A DNA stretch of 64,000 nucleotides from Phytophthora sp. 'mugwort' (lineage: Eukaryota > Oomycota > Peronosporomycetes > Peronosporales > Peronosporaceae), in assembly GCA_033558025.1 (NCBI GenBank), contig JAUCEF010000004.1, forward strand, positions 2,170,001 to 2,234,000, in the 5' to 3' direction. Of the stretch, positions 11,660 to 54,544 are shown piece after piece. The notes under the pieces are model-generated. The model was not told where the DNA came from, ran no database searches, and saw nothing but the letters and a program-made list of their open reading frames with translations. Numbering within the stretch: position 1 is the stretch's first letter; each line of letters starts with the position of its first letter. The position numbers and the translations under genes are program-made.

Positions 11660-11771
11660 TACCAGATCCGGGGCGTATGCCGCTGGATCCAAGTATGTGG
11701 GCACAGGCTCACTCTGCAATGGGCCTGTGCCCACATACTTGGATCCAGCGGCATACGCCCCGGATCTGGTA
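11660..11771. repeat. Perfect 49-bp inverted repeat with 14-nt loop
   Basis: Bases 11660-11708 (starting TACCAGATCCGGGGCG) are the exact reverse complement of 11723-11771, separated by a 14-base spacer. Any transcript would fold into a 49-bp hairpin. Both arms carry GGATCC, the motif strongly enriched in the adjacent gypsy element, so the hairpin probably belongs to that element or its 3' flank. Perfect arms imply a recent inverted duplication or ongoing correction between the arms. Confidence 0.9.
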
Positions 11772-12705
11772 TCGAAGGTGCAGATCAAGGCTCTATACGC
11801 TACCCAGCCGTGGACGGTCTTGGCTGGTGTGACGCCTGCGCCCTTTGCATTTTCATTTGGGATCGGGGAAGCTCGTCGGACATTATGTCTATTTTGACTG
11901 ATTTCGAGGGCTTCTTGTCTCGTCATCTGCAGGCGTTTTGGGAATCGACACATCCGTTCCTGATTTCTAAATCGATGAAGGATCAGGATCCATGGTTTTC
12001 CTCCTTCTACCGGAGCCGTAAAAATCGCAGTTCACGCTGCGTACCAGCCTGCGGATCCAGCGTACTGGATGCTGTGACTTGGATCTTCTTCTGGATCCAG
12101 CTTTCTTGCATTTTCCCCAAGCCGCTGAAGACGCGACATGGTTCCCTGGTCGTGAGGCAATTGCCATAGGGGAGGCTGCTCCCGTCACTCTAACTGCCGC
12201 GTTGGCAAATTATGACTAGGCTTGTCCCTGGCGCAATCACTTTCGCACATCTCCGGGTGATCATCCGTCTCTCTCGATTGGCCTTCTTCGTGGCAAGTTC
12301 GTGCCGGATCAGTGAAGTTGTCGTCTCGTTCCCTTTTCCAGGTTTCCCTTTTGCGTATCTTGGATAATATAATCGACTCTTTCTCCTTGTTCCTGGTGTT
12401 GCCTGGTTTTTTTTGGTGGATCTTGACTTGGTTCAGCCGCTTATGCAGTGGATCCCAGCTGGATGCTACCACTTGTGTGGTGGATCCTAACTGGATCCTG
12501 GATCCTACCTGGGTCCAACCACTTGTCGTCTGCGAACACCGTGGGAATTACATATACACTCACAATTCTCTGTTCTTCCAGCCGCGCAGCCACCCTCCGC
12601 ATCTTTTCTTCTGTTATTCGTCCCGGCCGCCTAAAAGCCGGGCGGTACCCTTTTCCGCCTACCCCTGCCAACGGGGTCTTCTCTCTCCGTCTTCCACATC
12701 AAGGC
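11772..12705. other. 3' region of the gypsy element, LTR not resolved
   Basis: GGATCC-rich sequence (three copies between 12481 and 12505) downstream of the minus-strand gypsy coding region, so its 3' untranslated region and probably its 3' LTR lie here. I could not match it by eye to a second LTR beyond 21 kb. No independent gene is supported; a 193-residue plus-strand frame (11588-12169) spans the hairpin and looks spurious. Confidence 0.4.
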
Positions 12706-13338
12706 CTATTTCCTGATAGGGATCCTCCGCACTAGTTCTCTCTCGTGCGACTGCATTACCTGGAAACGACTACGCTTGGCTTGTTTCGTAGGAAATCGTA
12801 CAGCATAGCTCCACAATTCAGATCCGACTTTTTTTACCCATGTTGGTTCGTCATACCCCTTCCAGCGTACTTCAAACTCCCGTAGACTCCTTCCGTAGCG
12901 TGCGGGTCGGCGTGTTCTCATGTTGATAATTTCTTCGACCTCCTACTCGTCGTCGTCCAAGTCTCGTTCCCAACTATCTTCGGGCAGGAGCGCTTCGTCA
13001 AAATCCACTCGATTCGCCTCGTCTACCGTTATCTTAATGGTCGGGCGATCCGGGAAAGTACGAACCAACTTCAGCTTGGATACATGTACCACCGGAAAAA
13101 GGCGATAGTCCTGCCCGCCACTTCTAGTCTGATCGCATAATCGCTTACCATATCGGCCACTCGGAATGGGCCATGCCACATGTGGGCCAGCTTTTTCGCA
13201 TAGCCTTCTTTGACGCGCTCCAGATATAGCACACCGGGAACCGGCTTCGATCGCACGTGACGTGGCTGTTTCGTTATATTGGCTGGCGCGTTCGGCGATC
13301 GCCTTTTTCAACCTCGCATTGACTTCCGTTCTTTGCAC
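12706..13338 (-). pseudogene. Gypsy integrase C-terminus and chromodomain-like tail
   Basis: The frame 13338-12943 carries the end of integrase and the linker, with VVHVSKLKLVRTFPDRP typical of gypsy integrase C-termini. The next frame, 12921-12706, has FEVRWKGYDEPTWV, the chromodomain signature (aromatic residues and WKGY) used by chromoviruses to direct insertion to marked chromatin. A stop or frameshift separates the two. Confidence 0.7.
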
Positions 13339-13639
13339 CTTGGTAGATTCGTTGGATTTTATATCTCCACCGACGAGGATCTATGTCTCTTCGCCTTGTA
13401 CTACCAACAGGTAGAGTTGCTTCGAGCGTGGTTCGGGGATCCCACCCATGAGCCAAATAGAAAGGCGTATCACCTCAGATCCTATCATGCGCGGTGTTCA
13501 GCGCGAACGTTAGCCGCTCTGCATACTCGTCCCAATCTCGTTGATCTTCGTCTTCTACATACATCTTCAACGATCTAGTGATGGTTTGTACCATTCGTTC
13601 TGCGGTGCCATTCGCTTGGGGTCGGTATGCCATAGTTGT

Positions 13640-14480
13640 CCGTTATCGTTACCCGAGGATCCGATTGAATATCACAAAGAATTCAGACATAAAACCAGGT
13701 TCTCTGTCATGGCGGATCACTTCACTAGCGCCAAAACGCCGGAACACGCATTCCTCATAAGATTCAGCAATAGTTTGAGCTCTGCGGGATCCGCTCGCTT
13801 TGGCTATCGCATAACCTGTGAACAGGTTTACCCAGATCAGCAGCTCCGTATTTCCTTTGTGTGACTGGCAGCGACGGTATATGATCCACGGCGATGATTT
13901 GAAATGGGTAAGTAGCCTGCAGGTTACCTGGGGACTTGCCTCTATCGTAGGTCGCCCCTTTCCTGTCTCACAATCAGTAGACTCGCCCACATACTGCTGA
14001 ACGTCTCGAAATAATCCTCGCCAAAAGAAATAATTCTTGATTCGCTGGAAGGTACGTCCGATCCCTTGGTGACCTCCTTCTAGACTGGCATGGTAATGGT
14101 GTAAGACATGAGTCTGCAGCATTTCCGGGATCACTAGTAGGATCGACCCGTCACGTTCGATTTCTGTCCTCGCTGCTGGCGGACAGTAGTACAACAGGCC
14201 TTGTTCATCCAGTTCGTAATCTACGGCGATGTTACTGCATGATCGTGCTTCCTTCTTCTCCAGTTCACTTACTTCACCTCTCAAATATTTCTTTGAGGTG
14301 ATGGATCTAGCTTTCCTCGTCCTGAGCTTGACGAACCGGTCGACCCGAAGTTGGCGGACTACTTCTTCCTTTAATATTCGGGGGTTACTGATCACCTGTC
14401 GAGCGCGAATCTTTACGGCTGTTAGTCGCCACGTCGATTCACTATTCCCGGAAACCAAAACTTCTGACAGTCGGTTTAAA
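13640..14480 (-). pseudogene. Gypsy integrase zinc-binding and catalytic core
   Basis: The translation contains HHYHASLEGGHQGIGRTF, the HHCC-type region in which the paired His are visible. The downstream Cys pair is partly lost: only STDCETGK remains, where C-x2-C is expected. The core follows with an altered first acidic region (SPWIIYRRC), then LLIWVNLFTGYAIA, and VIRHDREPGF, where the second catalytic Asp sits. The third acidic residue is not reached before the frame breaks near 13650. Confidence 0.7.
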
Positions 14481-14940
14481 GTGACTAGATCCTCTCGCGC
14501 TTGATCTCCGATGACTATTATTCCGGCTTCTCGTTGCAATGCCGCGCCGGCAAGACTGTCTGCGCTGGCGTTCCATGCCCGCTTAACGTGTAGCAGATCA
14601 TGTACTGGCCAGGCTTGCAGTTTTCGTAAGCTTTCTGCCGTAACAACGTTAAAGTCGGTGCCTTGCAATCAATTTCTCCACGCATCTGTCGGATCACCAA
14701 ATTGGAATCTCCACACATTACCACTCGTTTACGTTCCAGATCTTCGAGTAGATCGAAACACAATAAGAGACCACTATACTCTGCTTCGTTGACCGTTGAC
14801 TCTTCTTTCTATACGGATGCTGCCTTAACCACTGTCCATTCCGGTAGTTTCCACACAATTGCACTACAGGCTCCTCCTCCTCGTTTGACTCGTGCGGATC
14901 CGTCGAAACTGACAACCCACAGATCTTCGTCGTAGTTCAC
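14480..14940 (-). pseudogene. Second (archaeal-type) RNase H domain of the gypsy element
   Basis: After the usual gypsy RNase H comes an extra RNase H fold, read across three frames: VVSFDGSARV (first Asp, codon at 14902-14904), STVNEAEYSGLLL (Glu), VVMCGDSNLVIRQ (second Asp) and HVKRAWNASADSLAGAAL (His/Asp end motif). All four catalytic acidic positions are visible. This archaeal/plant-like type has been reported as an independent acquisition in some oomycete and plant LTR elements. Frameshifts occur near 14765 and 14810. Confidence 0.7.
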
Positions 14941-15093
14941 AGTCGGGACAGGTAGCTCGATGGTTCGACGAGGTTCTTTTCGTGGAGCGATGGCTATTAG
15001 GGCCTGATCTACTTCGGACCGCGTCGTGATACTTGCCGCTAAGGATCCCACGATTTCATCCTTGCATTTCGTGCATTTCGTAATCTTCAAAAT

Positions 15094-15721
15094 TCAAGGC
15101 GAAAGCAGGGCAGTCCATTGGCTAAGCCGCCCTTGTAATCCTGCAGATCTGAAGAGCCAGGACAACGTCGTATGGCGCGTCACAACCCTGATCTGTCTTC
15201 CCATCAGCGTAGAGTGCGCCAGATCTAACATCCGTAACAGATCCAACACTTCTTTGTCCACAATCCCATAGGTGAGCTCATTCTGCATCAACGTTCGACT
15301 AGCGAACATCACCGGGAAGTAGGTATTATCATATTCTTGCATCAGCGACGCCGAGATGGCCCAGTCGCTCGCAGAGATGATAATGACGGGTTGTTTGAGC
15401 GGGTCAAAGTGTCTGAAGATCGGGGTTGCTGCGATCTTATCTTTAAGCGTATTGAACGCTAACTCGGCCCGTGTTCACTGTCTCGAGATCGAGTGAATCC
15501 GACTCGGGTGGAATGGATCCCGCGTGTGGTACATCGATCCGGGACTCCTTCCGATCCTGAGATCTGCCCGCCTCTCGCAATGCTGCAAAGTCCACTTCCC
15601 GGAGTTCATACAGCACCGCTGCGTACACAGCCATATCCTCAATAAAGCGGCTGTAGTAGTTCAGGCTGCCTAGAAAAGACTGCATCGCTCGCAAGGATCT
15701 CGGAAATGGCAGATCTACCAC
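15094..15721 (-). pseudogene. Gypsy RT connection region and first RNase H
   Basis: Frame 15721-15443 reads LRAMQSFLGSLNYYSRFIEDMA, the conserved thumb/connection region after the polymerase. Frame 15342-15094 reads FPVMFASRTLMQNELTYGIVDKE, typical of the gypsy RNase H that follows directly. The YADD-like polymerase active site should lie in the 15720-15970 gap. That gap includes a C-run (15800-15810) and is frame-broken; on the minus strand the nearby translation includes SYIDDILV-like sequence. Confidence 0.7.
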
Positions 15722-15973
15722 GCCTTGAGATCTTTAGGATGAGCTTCCAAATCTTCATGTGTGACACTCCATGCCCGAGATAATCCACTTTTCGACCCCC
15801 CCCCCAAACTCTTAGTCACGCTAATGCACAAGGCCCAGTTGTTGCATTCTTTAAGTAGACGCTTCGCCCTCTCACATAGTTGTTCCCAGGTTCCGTCAGT
15901 GACCAGGATATCGTCAATGTAGGATCTGCGGCCTATAACGGACGGCTGTCCCGACTCTTCCGCTTGGACCGTC

Positions 15974-16925
15974 TCAAAACAGGTCAGTTTGCGACTCCTC
16001 TCCGGTCGGAGGGATCCTTATGAATCCATACAGCGCGTTATCCACCAGCCGCTGGTAAATCTGGGGGCGTCTCTTAATCGAATGGCATACGGTTCCACTC
16101 GAACAGTCCAAAGGTGTGACAAAAGCTGAGACTGCGCGAGCGCGATCCGTCATAGCTACCACCCAGAATCCACTAGCCATATCCAGAGAGCAATACCACA
16201 GCACCTTATCTAGATCTTCCAATAGATCATTGATCAGGGGCATCGGGTAAACCATTAGTCTGGTTAGACTATTCACCCGCCTGTAATCGATGCCTAATGT
16301 CCACTCCATTCTTCTTAATGATCACCACGATTGGCGAGGCCCAGGGTGACGTCGAGTGTCGGATGATCTTGGCAGCCAGTAGCTTCTTGATCAACTCCGA
16401 AACTTTCTCGCGGAACTGGGGTGCGATCTTGCGTACTCGTTGCGCGATCGGCTTTGCATTTCCGACGTCGGTGTCACATAACACTCCAATTGCAGCGGGG
16501 GGAAGAGCATTACCTTTCCCGATTAGAAGATGTTTATGTCCCCAGATTATTTCCTTCAGCCTCTGTATCTCTTCTGCCGTATTATCTTCCAGGTTTCCGA
16601 ATTGAAGATCTTCCATGCGAACTTCTGTCGTTGTGGCTGAAACTTCCGGGAGCACTGCTAGCTGATCTTCCAGATCCTCTGCATACACTGTGTTGCCTTC
16701 GTGATAATAACCTTCGTCTTCTACGATTGGACACTCGGCCAGCACGACTGGTCCTTGTCCGGACTTCACTTCAGGTGGGAGCGTTGCCTCTTGCATAACC
16801 AGTACTTCCTCGGTGAGTCCCTCTTGACTCACCTTTTGTACTGCGTCGCCCTCTGGTTTGGGCCTTGGATTCGTAAAGCCATTCGTGGATCCGGGGAACT
16901 GTCCAAGTCTTGTTTCGTCTATCAT
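15974..16925 (-). pseudogene. Gypsy reverse transcriptase N-terminal half
   Basis: Frame 16925-16269 ends with HSTSPWASPIVVIIKKNGVD, the conserved RT motif 1. Frame 16309-15974 continues with LGIDYRRVN, YPMPLINDLLEDL and YCSLDMASGFW, containing the first catalytic Asp. A one-base frame change joins the two near 16290-16310. The N-terminal 150 residues are the acidic protease-RT linker. Confidence 0.8.
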
Positions 16926-17030
16926 TCTTGCGAATCCTCCTTTTTGGGGGCTGGGGATATAGTGCTGGACACTGTCTTTTCACTCTCAACCTCGTCTTCG
17001 ACCGTTGATCCTGATCCATTGGTAGATGGA

Positions 17031-17960
17031 TTATCTTGAGCTTCGGGATCTGATCCAGAGAAATCCAGTTCCAGCACATATCGATCTTCGATCATTGATG
17101 GCGGTACGTCCTGTTTTGCTCTTCTCCTGGTATAGAGGTGATGTCACGTACCACTGCAATCTTTGGGTGACCTTCCAAACTTGTCGGTCTCCGCAGAATT
17201 TCTTTCGGTCTGGGATACTCCGGTCGTGATAAAAATGGTAAGGATCCGGCGGTGGTGGCTTGGCTGCTTCTGCCCGAGCTGCTTCAGTGGTAGCACTCAG
17301 CGCGAGATTCTGCCATTCCACATGGCACCGCGATCCTACCGAAACGAACTTGATTTCTCTGGGTACGTTATCTCCTGACATCCATATCCCCACCACCTTA
17401 TCATGTTGAGGGATCAGTGGTTTCTCCGCCAGGTTGGTGAGTTGTAGGTACTTGATTTGTCCCGGACCATTCGCTAGAGTCGGTACCCAGTTTGCACCTC
17501 CGGTTAACCACAACTTGTTTGACGGTGACAGGCGGATCCGTTGAGGCAATTCTATGTTCAGTCCTGGATCAACCCGGAGGTGTTTACCTACGGTGTGCCG
17601 TCTGGCCCGGTCGCTGAAGATCCTGCGCCTCCCTTGGAGCGGGATCCGGACTTCGTCGGGCAGACACACTGTTCCATCACCTAAGTCTAGACGGACCCCT
17701 GCTGGGACCATGAAGTCCATATCCAGGATCGCCTGGTTTTCTGAAGGAACATCATCTCCAACCCACACATCGTAATAGTACACCAGCCTCCCTGGCAAGG
17801 TAAGCTTGATGCGTATACGTCCTTTCGCCACATATAACTTTTCGCCGATCCCTAGGCATTCTTGACTTTGACTTTCGTCGATCTGGCATCCTACCTTACG
17901 AGCAAAGGTGGCATCGATAATCGATACCTCGGATCCTGTTCAAGAAGCATTACGGTGTTG
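17031..17960 (-). pseudogene. Gypsy aspartic protease region
   Basis: Minus-strand translation from about 17960 gives SIIDATFARKVGC, the flap-side sequence that follows the active-site DTG in oomycete gypsy proteases, then YYYDVWVGDD and ILDMDFMVPAGVRLDL, the conserved second half. The DTG itself is not readable (it falls at a frame break near 17935), so the protease would be inactive. The remainder to 17031 is a linker. Confidence 0.6.
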
Positions 17961-18264
17961 GTGTTGTTAATCTTTCCACTAACTTTGGCCTGCTTGCGGT
18001 GTTTGTTAAGCACGTGATATTTCCAATACCCGCACGATTCACCTGGGAGCAGATCCAAACTCATGGCCACGTCCGCCCCCCTCGTATTCGTCGTTCGGGC
18101 GAAGACTTACCACTGCAGCCTTCCAAATTTCGGGTGGATCAAGTTATTACGGAATACACTGGATGGTGGTCGGCTAACCTCTTATCTCTTCTTTCTTTCC
18201 ACAAATGCATATACGTATGGACAAGAACGCTCGTCTCGTACTGAGTTCCACCTCAGTGAGCGTC

Positions 18265-18492
18265 CTATTTTAACATCTTCTCGGCTGCTTCAGGCAGGAG
18301 TCCGTTCTTCGCCACCGGGTCGTACCACTGGCGGATCAGGTTGTAGAATTCTTCCATCTGGCATTTGCCGTGATCGTGAATTTCTCCACAGCCACGGCAC
18401 ACGAAGAAGCACCGATCTGACGGATGTCCTCTTTTGCCACACTTCCCGCAGGTCAAACGTTTCCAGCATTCCCGATCCGAGTGTTTATGCAT
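18265..18492 (-). pseudogene. Gag zinc-knuckle segment
   Basis: The 75-residue frame contains CGKCGKRGHPSDRC (CCHC zinc knuckle) followed by CRGCGEIHDHGKC, a second Cys/His cluster. These bind retroelement RNA in the nucleocapsid part of Gag. It is bordered by stops on both sides. Confidence 0.65.
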
Positions 18493-19749
18493 CCGCAGTG
18501 GAGTAACGTGGCGACTTATTGCGATTGAACTTGCGGTGACTCTGTTGAGGCGGGTCCGTGGGTATCGAGTTCGGCAGGGTTTGGATCGGGTGGCTTTGAT
18601 CCGCGGATCTTGGTTGGTTGGTGGCTTGCGTCGCTGGTGGCTGATCCGCCAACGCAGCGATATACGCGTGGCGTACGTCGTTGTCCGATCCGGATCCGTC
18701 TGAGTTTGATCCGAGGTCCGAGTCTGATTCCTGAATGTGGATCACCCGGACTGCACGGGCTGGCGCGCTTGAAGGCAGGGGGCTTGGTTTCGGTCGGAAT
18801 TTGGTGGATCCTGCTGGCTTTTTCTGGCTGGACTTCGATCGTTCACGGGCTTAGAGTACTTCCTCCAGTTGTTCCGCATCTGCTAGGCGCAATAACGTAC
18901 GCTGAGCCGCCAGCTCCACGTCACCCAGAGTTTCGATTAAATGATCCACATGCTCGCGTCGTGACTTCAAGTCACCAACCATCCTTGATCTTCACTCGGG
19001 CTCGCATACCTGCGACATTCAAGCGGTAGAGGTATTCCAGCGGCGTCACATCCGTGCGTTTGCGTGCGTGGTAGTATTGCCACGCGACTGAGATCCCAAG
19101 TCCACAGTATTGCATGTGGAAACTCCGCACCAGGTCGGCCAATTTCATTCGGGTTGACCGTCCGAGTTGGCGATACCAGTTGCGCGACTGTCCAGTGAGC
19201 AGACCCGCGAGGTAAGGCACTTTTATTCTTCCGACGCTTGGTCTATTGTAAATGCTAACTTTTTTTTTAACCTTGCTGATCCATGCTCTCGCTCTCTCTT
19301 CCTCGCGGTCTTTTCCCGTGAATTCTTTTAGATCCGAGACAGCCGAGATCTTGACTCGTTGCACTCCAGCGGATCCTCCGGACGTGTCTGCGGCCGGCTG
19401 CCGTCGTGGTTGCACGGCTTGCCGGAGTTGTGTCCAGCTCATCCGGATCGTATTCCCAGTGTTCTGGGTGGTGTGATCCGACTGACTCCATTTCGATATC
19501 CTCCCCGGTCTCAGGATCCGGACGGCATTGGGGTAGTGGAGTAGCGGCTGTTTGCTGTTCCTTCAGGAACCGCGACATAGCTGTCTGGAAGTATGTCTCC
19601 AGGTTTCTCGGATCTTCCCTGATCACGGGTCTGCTCGTACGGGCAGCTGGTACCACCGGTCTCGCGTGGTGTTTCACTGGCAACGGACTGTTGACTCTGG
19701 CTGGCAGCCGGTTTCGTAACATCGAGGTTCCGGCAGGATCCATCGACAT
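18485..19749 (-). pseudogene. Gag capsid segment
   Basis: Frame 19442-18972 contains FTGKDREEERARAWISKVK, GLLTGQSRNWYRQL and LADLVRSFHMQYCG, matching the retrotransposon Gag capsid fold. Frame 19749-19267 supplies the upstream part in another frame, overlapping by frameshift near 19270. Frame 18745-18485 gives an acidic Ser/Asp-rich linker before the zinc knuckles. Confidence 0.65.
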
Positions 19750-19781
19750 GCGTTGCGGTTCAGAGGAACTGTCTGATCCGG

Positions 19782-20729
19782 CTACCGAAGTCGCCGAAGC
19801 ATATTGAGAGGATCCCGTCTGATATTCCTGCGGCTGGACACGGCCACAGTTGAGTCCATTCTCGGTTGAGCCGTTGGACCCACCGTTGGGGTGGTCTTCG
19901 ACATTGTCTTCTGTGTCATTTCCGAGGTGGGTCGTTCACCCACGACTGGCTTCAACACGTTGAACAGCGATGTAACGGAGATCCTAATCATGTCATGCTC
20001 CATGCAGACTAGGACTTCTGCATCGAAGGCTCCGGCCGTCAGACCAGCCTCGTCCAACAGTCGTAGCAGATCCATGGCTGCGTCCAACCCGTTCGACGTC
20101 TCGATTGGCGCCGTGATTGGCCCCGTCAGGGAGCTTAAGAGCTGTGGCTGCAGGATCTGCATCACCGGATCTTCAAGAAGGAACTCAGCGAGCTTCGTCC
20201 GCTGATAAGCCAATTCTAGATTGGATCGTGCTGTGTTCAGATCAACACGATCTTCCCCTTCAGAGTCAGGTGCCTTAAGTTTCTTCCTTGTGGTTTTGTT
20301 CTTCTTCTTCTTGGATGCAGCGCCTGAGGCTGGAGGGGTATTGGTGAGTGAAGGTCCTTTAGCTTTCGCTTTTGGTCCTTCATACGGCGAATCCCGACTC
20401 GCGTCGAGATTCACGGGGGTCCCCGGAGCGACCTGGGGAGGAGGGTGAGGCTTTTCTTCGAGAAGTTCGGCCTCTGTACTATCGATAAGGCTCCCCCCAG
20501 CGCTATATCGCTTCGTGGATCTCGCTTTCAGCGACGCCGCCAATGATCCAACTTCCGTCGGCGCTTCATCTCCCGATTCATAGCTCACATGCGCATCATC
20601 TTGGGATTCACGGTGAAATCCCAATGTGGTGGAGCGGATCAGTAAAATCACTGGATCCGTGCACCCACTGCGCCCAGACACCGACTGTGGAGGGGGTACT
20701 CCGATAGCCGTGTAGTTGCTGAGGTTCAC
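19782..20729 (-). pseudogene. Gag N-terminal extension
   Basis: A 315-residue frame, low-complexity and Pro/Lys-rich in its middle (KKKKNK near residue 135), with a predicted helical section (ARSNLELAYQRTKLAEFLLE). It precedes the capsid frame and shares nucleotide similarity at its 5' end with the fragment at 54.6-54.96 kb, including CCAGACACCGACT and TTCACCTTGTGTA. The function is unrecognised beyond being the start of this element's Gag. The first codon in the frame is not ATG, so the true start is unknown. Confidence 0.5.
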
Positions 20730-20944
20730 CTTGTGTACCCGTCGGCGGGCTGGATATGCGGTGAGCTCTGAATCGTCCTTTAGTAGGACTTTGGGGGGGG
20801 ATTTGGCGTGGGTATTCCTGCACGCCGAGATCCGTTCGAGTTGATCTTGGACTTGGCCGTAGATCTTGTGGATCGGTATAGTAAACCGGATCCGGAGTAG
20901 TGCCGCGTTAAGGGGCTTCCTTTAATCTTTACGTTGCTTGTACC

Positions 20945-20951
20945 GCTACCA
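20945..20951 (-). other. Candidate retroelement primer-binding site
   Basis: The minus strand reads TGGTAGC, fitting a tRNA 3' end GCTACCA. It lies about 215 bp upstream of the Gag frame. The same heptamer sits at the expected site of the second gypsy fragment (57397-57403), which supports the call. Confidence 0.4.
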
Positions 20952-20999
20952 ATAGCGGGGGCTTGAGGGGGTTGAGAACCGAAGGGCAGACTTCTAGCC

Positions 21000-21574
21000 A
21001 AGCTTATCTAGTAAGTGCCACAAATGGATGGAGTATATTACTTAATTAAAGTATGGACCAATGCGGATCCCTATACTAATAACCAGTGTTGTGTATTTCC
21101 AAGTAAATTCGATTCTGACTTATGGGGGTCCCTGGCCACCACTCGTTTCGGCCTTCCCATCCCAGTTGGCTCTTAGCCACTAGATCTTTGTCCACCGTCT
21201 ACGCTATACAGGATTCCTGTCCTCCTTCTACGCTTTTACCTATCTGGTTATTATGTCCTGTTTTCCTGTTTCTACGGCAGATCCGCCCTTAATATGGCCA
21301 GATCCGGTACCTTGGATCTGGCCTAAGTTCGCTTCCCAATCCAAGTGGGTTGATCAGCACTTAGCCGGTTGCCGCGCATTCAGGGTCCTGATCCATCCAA
21401 TCCGGTCGGGATCCATCAACCCGCTGCCGTTGGCATCTCCATCATCCTTCCAATCCGTTACGAAAAACCTTCCCATATTTTATTGGGAGTGGCTCCTGCT
21501 CTGTCTGTTGCGCAAGGTAACTTTCTCTTGTTCACTTCACCACAAAAACTTGTTTTAGCTGTATTTTTGAATTC
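21000..21574. other. Upstream region of the gypsy element, LTR not resolved
   Basis: Expected position of the 5' LTR of the minus-strand element. It contains GGATCC and GATCCGG motifs (about 21065 and 21400) but no matching partner repeat was found by eye. No gene is supported. Confidence 0.35.
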
Positions 21575-22528: not shown

Positions 22529-22677
22529 ATATTGCAGTACCGGTAGATTGTAATACACCCCTTTGCAAAAACATGATTTGAATGCATTAATGATTTGCCA
22601 TCCTTGCTATTGAAGTGGCGCCTAGGACTACGATAATACGGTAGTCTTGCCCCTCAAGCACATGAATTAGTCTGATA

Positions 22678-22728
22678 TAGACTAATTATGAACATAGACT
22701 AATTATGAACATAGACTAATTATGAACA
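22678..22728. repeat. 17-bp tandem repeat, three copies
   Basis: The unit TAGACTAATTATGAACA is present exactly three times (22678-22694, 22695-22711, 22712-22728), followed by degenerate partial copies (ACTAGTTTTTAA, AGACTAATTG). It lies just downstream of the pogo-like relic. Confidence 0.9.
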
Positions 22729-22945
22729 TATACTAGTTTTTAACTCAGACTAATTGCTGTAAGCACTGTAGACTCGGGCTTTGATAGTACTTAGCTACGA
22801 ATTCCATTAAATGAACTACTGAAAGGCGCCGCGAGTCCTAAACAAAAAAAACGAACGCATTCGCTTGTTTTTACGCCCGTAAAAGCAGGAAAATGTGTCC
22901 GTCTTACTCGTTCGAAAGCACACCAGGCTTTGAGAGACTTCCAGA

Positions 22946-54352: not shown

Positions 54353-54544
54353 CGTACTACTATATATGCATCTGAATGAGAATTGTATCAATATAATGCT
54401 TCCGTACTAGCTAGCCTACTAGTACAGAAGCTTCATTCTGAATGAAACTTGTATCAGTATAATGCTTCCGTACTAGCTAGCCTGCTAGTACAGAAGCATT
54501 ATAGTGGTACTAATTTCATTCAGATGCATATATAGTAGAACGTT
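54353..54544. mobile_element. Palindrome-rich MITE-like element beside the Tc1 element
   Basis: CTACTATATATGCATCTGAATGA at about 54357-54379 is mirrored at 54516-54538, forming terminal inverted repeats of some 23-28 bp around a ~190-bp unit. Inside are two 48-bp direct copies (54384-54431 and 54450-54497, 46 of 48 identical). Each is itself a near-palindrome (GCTTCCGTACTAG...CTAGTACAGAAGC), with a small palindrome TTCATTCTGAATGAA between them. It begins 11 bp after the Tc1 target site. The repeats can fold into nested hairpins. No coding capacity. Confidence 0.75.

What the first reader, a model, noticed from the sequence alone, without database searches (positions are those of the whole stretch)
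11660..21430. Extreme GGATCC enrichment throughout a gypsy retroelement
Counting by eye, the palindrome GGATCC occurs 32 times between about 11685 and 21413 (about 9.7 kb). Random expectation is about 2-3, and I found only about 5 in the remaining 54 kb. The sites fall in gag, pol, linkers and non-coding flanks, in different reading frames and on a decayed copy, so amino-acid bias cannot explain them. GATC without flanking G/C is also unusually common, and the related fragment at 54.6 kb shares the trait. Possible causes are selection for a DNA-binding or methylation target that the element uses, a mutational or repair bias during its replication, or origin from a GGATCC-rich repeat.
Basis: seen in the sequence. 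Interest (0 to 1): 0.78.

Follow-up and report, generated by a model that had tools for sequence, protein, structure and literature searches.

The report
GGATCC-tagged gypsy retrotransposons in an oomycete
A family of jumping genes in this oomycete-like genome has kept an unusually dense sprinkling of one six-letter DNA palindrome (GGATCC, core GATC), chosen even at silent codon positions and fading after a copy lands, which suggests a DNA signal that something in the cell reads.

Summary
The count is right: 32 of the window's 37 GGATCC lie at 11685-21414; 200 dinucleotide shuffles averaged 3.8 and never passed 10 (30 observed in the stretch shuffled). The trait belongs to a lineage: all 25 relatives cut out (72-78% identity in the matched pol part) carry 1.4-4.4 GGATCC/kb and 15-20 GATC/kb (about 4/kb expected); six Copia loci do not. 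The element is a Chronos-like Ty3/Gypsy, concentrated near Copia clusters that I take for centromeres. Codon choice shows the sites are favoured as DNA: Asp leans to GAT when C follows, Arg/Gly to final A when TC follows, and silent flanks lean to G before and C after GATC, in two clades about 58% identical. GATC is the most conserved of 136 tetramer classes between them, yet about 64% of sites are unshared. After insertion sites decay (32 losses, 5 gains in four close copies). I read this as selection, in the active element, for symmetric double-stranded DNA sites read by a sequence-specific protein. DNA from other species, other Gypsy families and methylation data were not available.

The parts
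11660..21430 (-). Ty3/Gypsy (Chronos-like) retroelement copy, truncated and decayed, with 32 GGATCC and 151 GATC
   Evidence: homology to the C6 copy runs from 11720 to at least 21511, the end of the piece fetched, so the true right-hand end was not fixed
12450..12505 (.). densest GGATCC cluster (12450, 12482, 12493, 12500), outside the pol frames and beyond their 3' end
11660..11771 (.). fold-back: 52-bp arms, 98% complementary, 8 bp apart, at the truncated end; the arms carry GGATCC at 11685 and 11741
   Evidence: only one arm in the C6, C12 and C7 copies, read from the overlapping matches
18265..18741 (-). gag-like frame with Cys/His zinc-knuckle-like stretches (by eye; no Pfam match)
17031..17939 (-). 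frame upstream of RT, protease-like by eye (TGSEVSIIDATF); no Pfam match
15974..16321 (-). reverse transcriptase fragment (RVT_1, 19.9 bits, below cut-off 29.6)
15094..15474 (-). Ty3/Gypsy RNase H (RT_RNaseH, E 2.7e-19)
14518..14808 (-). second RNase H (RVT_3, E 4.8e-4, 20.5 bits, just under cut-off 21.6)
13649..14668 (-). integrase: Integrase_H2C2 (E 3e-14) and weak rve (17.1 bits, cut-off 32.6); the homologues listed with an organism name (120 of 329 listed) are Phytophthora or Peronospora
12943..13380 (-). C-terminal pol frame; no Pfam match here, but the homologous frame of the C6 copy (L034:972-1511) has a chromodomain (27.0 bits, cut-off 25.1)

Best explanation
The window holds a dead copy of a Chronos-like Ty3/Gypsy lineage whose active members are selected to carry many copies of a palindromic double-stranded DNA site: core GATC, preferred form GGATCC, on average every 54-66 bp, in LTR, leader and coding DNA alike. 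Shown here: lineage-wide enrichment, choice at synonymous sites with symmetric synonymous flanks, conservation with turnover between distant clades, and decay after insertion. Inferred: the sites are read on double-stranded DNA (cDNA or integrated copy) by a symmetric, sequence-specific protein, and each site adds a little to a copy's success. Adenine methylation of GATC is the main alternative.
For: 25 of 25 relatives cut out are GATC-rich. In open frames of 150 aa or more of L003-L032 and L058-L060 (some antisense; L058-L060 overlap L004, L005 and L009), GGATCC is 221 against 75 after synonymous codon shuffling, in phases 65/81/75. Clade B codon choice (25 loci): Asp GAT 0.79 before C against 0.32 otherwise; Arg/Gly NGA 0.69 before TC against 0.28; Ile ATC 0.83 after G against 0.67; third-base G 0.65 before ATC against 0.43; all four are also significant in clade A (4 copies, p at most 7e-5) and none in nine ORFs of the window outside the element (p 0.13-0.78; four of the nine have no Pfam match). 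Synonymous flanks are symmetric: G before GATC 0.64 against 0.33 (n 243/1031), C after it 0.48 against 0.20 (n 226/900). Between clades GATC is the most conserved of 136 tetramer classes (0.358; 0.154 of all aligned tetramers are identical) while about 64% of sites are unshared. Presence/absence parsimony gives gains/losses of 116/74 on internal and 106/157 on terminal branches (odds ratio 2.3, p 1.7e-5; other words 1.0). Six of six Copia loci have 3.5-4.3 GATC/kb, as composition predicts.
Against: No reader protein was found. The copies are related by descent, so pooled p-values overstate the evidence; in the window copy alone the four codon tests point the right way but are not significant (p 0.08-0.36). 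Some control words also change with branch length. No DNA from other species was reached. About 150 weakly selected sites per element need cumulative selection, which is inferred and not measured.
Confidence: 0.55

Rival explanations
1. GATC is the substrate of the host's adenine methyltransferases (DAMTs). Dense sites attract 6mA, which either protects the element or is a host mark that the element exploits.
For: Recombinant Phytophthora DAMTs (PsDAMT2 excepted) make DNA sensitive to DpnI, which cuts methylated GATC, and 6mA peaks are enriched in transposable elements, with 37% (P. infestans) and 15% (P. sojae) of peaks in LTR elements (PMC6211444, passages). This genome has four PF10237 matches that look like three genes, two on C7 and one on C5.
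Against: DpnI reports only GATC, so the assay does not show that GATC is the preferred site. Nanopore 6mA in P. capsici gave TTATT(A/T), or (A/G)AGGAG in isolate RJA1, and not GATC (PMC10936191, passages). The G and C flank preference goes beyond GATC. No D12/Dam-class match in a six-frame search.
Confidence: 0.22
2. A mutational or repair bias of the element's replication cycle (reverse transcription or cDNA stage) creates GATC without selection.
For: The enrichment arises during the active life of the element and is not maintained after insertion. Between the clades the one-step variants are unevenly represented (GACC 296 and AATC 269 down to GTTC 15 in one direction).
Against: All 12 one-step variants occur; within clade B the four transitions are about equal (35-39 columns each) and the eight transversions have 9-19 each, where a simple editing process would favour one route. 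Palindromic flanks at synonymous sites also need explaining.
Confidence: 0.12
3. The palindrome acts in RNA: self-complementary GGAUCC promotes pairing or dimerisation of genomic RNA for packaging.
For: GGAUCC can pair with itself, and sites are spread over the element.
Against: Other self-complementary hexamers are far less frequent in the 25 relatives (TCGCGA 84, GGCGCC 70, against GGATCC 276), and the second most frequent, AGATCT (93), shares the GATC core. That points to recognition of GATC rather than to pairing strength.
Confidence: 0.08
4. Inherited oddity: an ancestor was GATC-rich for some other reason and all present copies are decaying remnants.
For: Copies do decay, and related copies share many sites.
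Against: Two clades at about 58% identity keep similar densities with about 64% of sites unshared; a young copy with 98.6% identical LTRs (L060) has 163 GATC in 8.9 kb.
Confidence: 0.05

Closest known systems
Chronos Ty3/Gypsy retrotransposons of oomycetes (PMC5348765)
   Same: RT, Gypsy RNase H, second RNase H (match just under cut-off), integrase and, in the C6 copy, chromodomain in that order; Peronosporales relatives
   Different: The passages read do not mention GATC/GGATCC enrichment or a position near centromeres; RT phylogeny was not tested here
VANDAL transposons with VANC anti-silencing proteins, Arabidopsis (PMC5735166, passages)
   Same: A short motif much enriched in one transposon lineage, working as a tag for a sequence-specific factor (there shown, here inferred)
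   Different: VANC motifs are 8-9 bp, in non-coding regions and as tandem repeats, and the protein is element-encoded; here a palindromic hexamer runs through coding and non-coding DNA with hardly any tandem arrays, and no reader is known
DNA uptake sequences of Neisseria and Haemophilus (recalled, no call)
   Same: A short self-identity tag spread over coding DNA
   Different: Bacterial whole-genome tag for uptake; nothing here points to uptake
CoLT Copia elements of Phytophthora centromeres (PMC7082073, passages)
   Same: Copia matches in this genome form one main cluster on each of 17 contigs, near many of these Gypsy copies
   Different: Copia superfamily; GATC at the level composition predicts and no consistent codon preference for GATC

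Membership tests
Chronos Ty3/Gypsy | dual RNase H between RT and integrase | tested here: inconclusive
   RT_RNaseH at 15094-15474 is clear (E 2.7e-19); RVT_3 at 14518-14808 is 20.5 bits against a cut-off of 21.6; several homologues carry PF13456 beside the integrase; the active-site type of the second RNase H was not tested
Chronos Ty3/Gypsy | chromodomain after the integrase | tested here: met
   found in the C6 copy (L034:972-1511, 27.0 bits, cut-off 25.1); the window copy's own frame gives no Pfam match
Chronos Ty3/Gypsy | position on the RT tree | not tested
   no reference RT set was aligned
VANDAL/VANC-type motif-tagged transposon | short motif strongly enriched in the element lineage | tested here: met
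VANDAL/VANC-type motif-tagged transposon | motifs in tandem repeats of non-coding regions | tested here: not met
   sites lie in coding and non-coding DNA; gap variation is close to random (CV 0.84-0.91); the window copy has one two-copy array. L043/L044 do show a 20-bp repeat with GGATCC, so other copies may have some
VANDAL/VANC-type motif-tagged transposon | element-encoded protein that binds the motif and relieves silencing | tested here: inconclusive
   Pfam scans of the frames given show only RT, RNase H, integrase and chromodomain parts plus weak coiled-coil matches in L060; binding cannot be tested here
6mA (DAMT) target | GATC in the element is N6-methylated in vivo | not testable with these tools
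   no read-level data; published evidence is mixed

The most novel reading that the evidence does not exclude
A eukaryotic LTR-retrotransposon lineage carries an element-wide self-identity code: a palindromic hexamer written into synonymous and non-coding sites, kept by selection across clades whose sequences have otherwise largely diverged, and read by a dedicated DNA-binding protein that tells these elements from host DNA.
Probability: 0.35. Interest if true: 0.92.

Novelty: new variant of a known kind. Interest (0 to 1): 0.8.

Why it matters
Selection for one short DNA word at silent sites along a retrotransposon would mean that the DNA itself, apart from its proteins and LTR ends, carries a dispersed signal. 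That would give a direct handle on how oomycetes, which in the two Phytophthora species tested lacked detectable 5-methylcytosine (PMC6211444, abstract passage), recognise transposons or are evaded by them, and perhaps on why this lineage gathers near the Copia clusters. The predictions are simple: a protein that binds GGATCC, or a modification at GATC that is confined to these elements.

Tried and rejected
Satellite or internal duplication as source: no direct repeats of 60 bp or more in 8-26 kb, one 18-bp two-copy array in the element. Amino-acid or codon-usage effect: rejected by codon shuffling and synonymous-choice tests. Chromosomal mutation bias: rejected by losses far above gains. General effect of the centromere region: not supported, since Copia copies from those clusters have no excess. 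General LTR-element effect: tested only on Copia.

Led nowhere: relatives of the integrase in viral and prokaryotic collections (20 and 123 pattern matches, none confirmed); an antisense coiled-coil frame in L060 as a possible accessory protein (matched only in L009, L051 and L060, which are the same copy); regular spacing (CV of gaps 0.84-0.91; pooled short gaps are uneven, which shared descent may explain); a recent survey of eukaryotic 6mA (PMC12695648: the term Phytophthora does not occur in its main text). Literature: no paper with GGATCC, retrotransposon and oomycete together; in the listings no title or abstract start reports this enrichment. These searches cover open-licence PMC papers only.

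Caveats on counts: one search scored 40 of 139 candidates and 30 loci were cut out; the 25 relatives L008-L032 include near-identical pairs (L029/L030, L026/L032). L007, a partial copy, is in the tree but left out (clade comparison). One search counted an ambiguous root as absence. In one search every abundant word tends to lose more than it gains; among the 25 most frequent classes shown GATC has the lowest gain/loss ratio (0.16), the next being 0.32. In one search, three of six control words also correlate with branch length (ATCG -0.45, CCGC -0.48, CTTC +0.58), so -0.83 for GATC stands out but is not alone, and GGATCC by itself gives -0.31 (p 0.13). The test used 40 of the 42 rows (two second pieces dropped) and, as control, 94 of the 150 RVT_1 rows, thinned by hand to about one per tandem array (those 150 being the scored part of 1506 candidates); the length of contig C11 was set to 3.4 Mb by guess; Copia spans came from the 150 scored of 1973 candidates, leaving out Copia rows more than 300 kb from the median of their contig; some control rows may themselves belong to the lineage. 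In one search the strand of 4 of the 25 loci was undecided, so I rely, where strand came from BLAST. In one search one of three codon tests reached p 0.03-0.04 in 2 of 6 Copia loci (3 of 4 codons each), a weak point of that control.
Full report
WHAT IS THERE. The stretch is one retroelement copy on the minus strand. GATC runs at 3-12 per 500-bp bin inside and 0-3 in the bins outside. Composition does not explain it; 200 dinucleotide-preserving shuffles never exceeded 10 GGATCC or 87 GATC, against 30 and 147 observed in 11773-21430. The basic unit is GATC (151 against 35.5 expected from the rest of the window); within the element the number of GGATCC (32) is what its GGATC and GATCC counts predict (29.2), so the two flanks add independently.

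WHICH ELEMENT. The frames give, in order, a gag-like zinc-knuckle region (by eye), an RT fragment, a Gypsy RNase H, a second RNase H just under the Pfam cut-off, an H2C2 integrase and weak rve; the C6 copy adds a chromodomain. This is the layout of Chronos elements described in Peronosporales (PMC5348765, passages). The homologues of the integrase that carry an organism name, among 120 listed of 329, are from Phytophthora and Peronospora. The genome (86.3 Mb, 154 contigs; one main Copia cluster on each of 17 contigs) resembles P. sojae, whose published assembly is 86 Mb in 70 contigs with Copia-like centromeres (PMC7082073, passages). The record is unnamed, so the species and the centromeres are inferences.

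THE TRAIT BELONGS TO THE LINEAGE. A search with 1.9 kb of pol found, besides the window itself, four close matches (92-94%, one of them partial) and many at 71-78% (40 of 139 candidates scored). All 25 of the diverged relatives cut out (L008-L032, 72-78%, including two near-identical pairs) carry 1.4-4.4 GGATCC/kb and 14.6-20.4 GATC/kb; pooled, GGATCC is 276 and the next palindromic hexamer, AGATCT, 93. A copy of the other clade with both LTRs (L060; LTRs 98.6% identical) has 35 GGATCC and 163 GATC in 8.9 kb, of which 7 and 16 lie in one 912-bp LTR. Six of six Copia loci have GATC at the level composition predicts. Genome-wide GGATCC is ordinary in number but clustered (75 triple clusters, against about 0.9 by a hand Poisson estimate from the rate).

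IT ACTS AT THE DNA LEVEL. Shuffling synonymous codons removes two thirds of the GGATCC in open frames of 150 aa or more (221 observed, 75 after shuffling; some frames antisense, three loci overlap others), and sites fall evenly in the three phases. Using sense-strand frames only, codon choice bends towards GATC by four routes in both clades: Asp GAT before C, Ile ATC after G, Arg/Gly ending in A before TC, third-base G before ATC. Nine ORFs of the window outside the element show none of this at p below 0.13, and six Copia loci show no consistent preference (one of three tests p 0.03-0.04 in two loci, on four codons each). The flanks at silent positions are symmetric: G before GATC 0.64 against 0.33, C after it 0.48 against 0.20, each clade significant alone. 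A symmetric preference on both sides points to recognition of double-stranded DNA by a symmetric protein, although RNA-RNA pairing is not strictly excluded.

IT IS KEPT WHILE ELEMENTS ARE ACTIVE AND LOST AFTERWARDS. In four close copies (window, C12, C6, C7; about 93% identical) changes were polarised site by site: of 267 GATC positions 32 were lost and 5 gained, at a loss rate (0.120) like that of all words (0.108). In clade B GATC density falls with terminal branch length (rho -0.83, 25 copies); three of six control words also correlate, less strongly (-0.45, -0.48, +0.58), and GGATCC alone gives -0.31, p 0.13. On the 30-copy tree gains/losses of GATC are 116/74 on internal and 106/157 on terminal branches, while other words together show no such shift. 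Between the clades (about 58% identity) GATC is the most conserved of 136 tetramer classes, yet about 64% of sites are unshared while density stays similar. One-step variants of all 12 kinds occur; within clade B the four transitions are about equal, between clades the kinds are uneven.

WHERE THE ELEMENTS SIT. 23 of 40 copies lie within 400 kb of the Copia cluster of their contig, against 8.6 expected (none of 5000 shuffles exceeded 19); 94 other RT loci show 17 against 18.8 (limits of this test are in Tried and rejected). The element of the window lies about 124 kb from the cluster of its contig. The chromodomain could explain this by itself, so position is context and not proof of function for GGATCC.

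MECHANISM. The closest precedent is VANC/VANDAL in Arabidopsis, where a 9-bp motif directs an anti-silencing protein (PMC5735166, passages); there the motifs sit in non-coding tandem repeats, here they pervade the element. Adenine methylation is the main rival: most Phytophthora DAMTs tested methylate GATC in vitro and 6mA is enriched in transposable elements, LTR elements among them (PMC6211444, passages), and this genome has PF10237 matches at what look like three genes; but P. capsici 6mA mapped to TTATT(A/T) or (A/G)AGGAG (PMC10936191, passages).

LIMITS. Copies share ancestry, so pooled p-values are optimistic; the window copy alone gives consistent but non-significant codon tests. Other Gypsy families and other species could not be read. 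No methylation or binding data were available.

Noticed in passing
window 11660-11771: Fold-back at the truncated end of the element: 52-bp arms 98% complementary with 8 bp between; the C6, C12 and C7 copies appear to have one arm only, so it probably arose at the breakpoint of this copy.
   Followed up: partly
G000 contigs C1-C14 and C16-C18 (on the window's contig C4:2315272-2527741): The 150 scored Copia RVT_2 matches (of 1973 candidates) form one main cluster on each of 17 contigs, as expected of CoLT centromeres.
   Followed up: partly
G000 C7:5390494-5391924 and C5:791430-791902: DAMT-like adenine methyltransferase matches (PF10237); the two on C7 are neighbours and lie about 87 kb from the Copia cluster of that contig.
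   Followed up: no
G000 C13:2064932-2159144 and C12:3344138-3418904: RVT_1 matches repeat mostly every 6725-6726 bases with open frames of up to 2184 aa: long tandem arrays of a retroelement.
   Followed up: no
L045, L049, L056 and other places: A different interspersed repeat carries three GGATCC within about 32 bp, but its surroundings are not GATC-rich (3.0-5.9 per kb).
   Followed up: no
L060:6977-7783 (-): Antisense coiled-coil open frame of 268 aa near the 3' end of the element; among the loci held it matched only loci of that same copy.
   Followed up: partly
window 22677-22755 and 54371-54497: Short tandem arrays of 17-bp and 66-bp units outside the element; the bin at 54501 has a small local peak of 7 GATC without GGATCC.
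   Followed up: no
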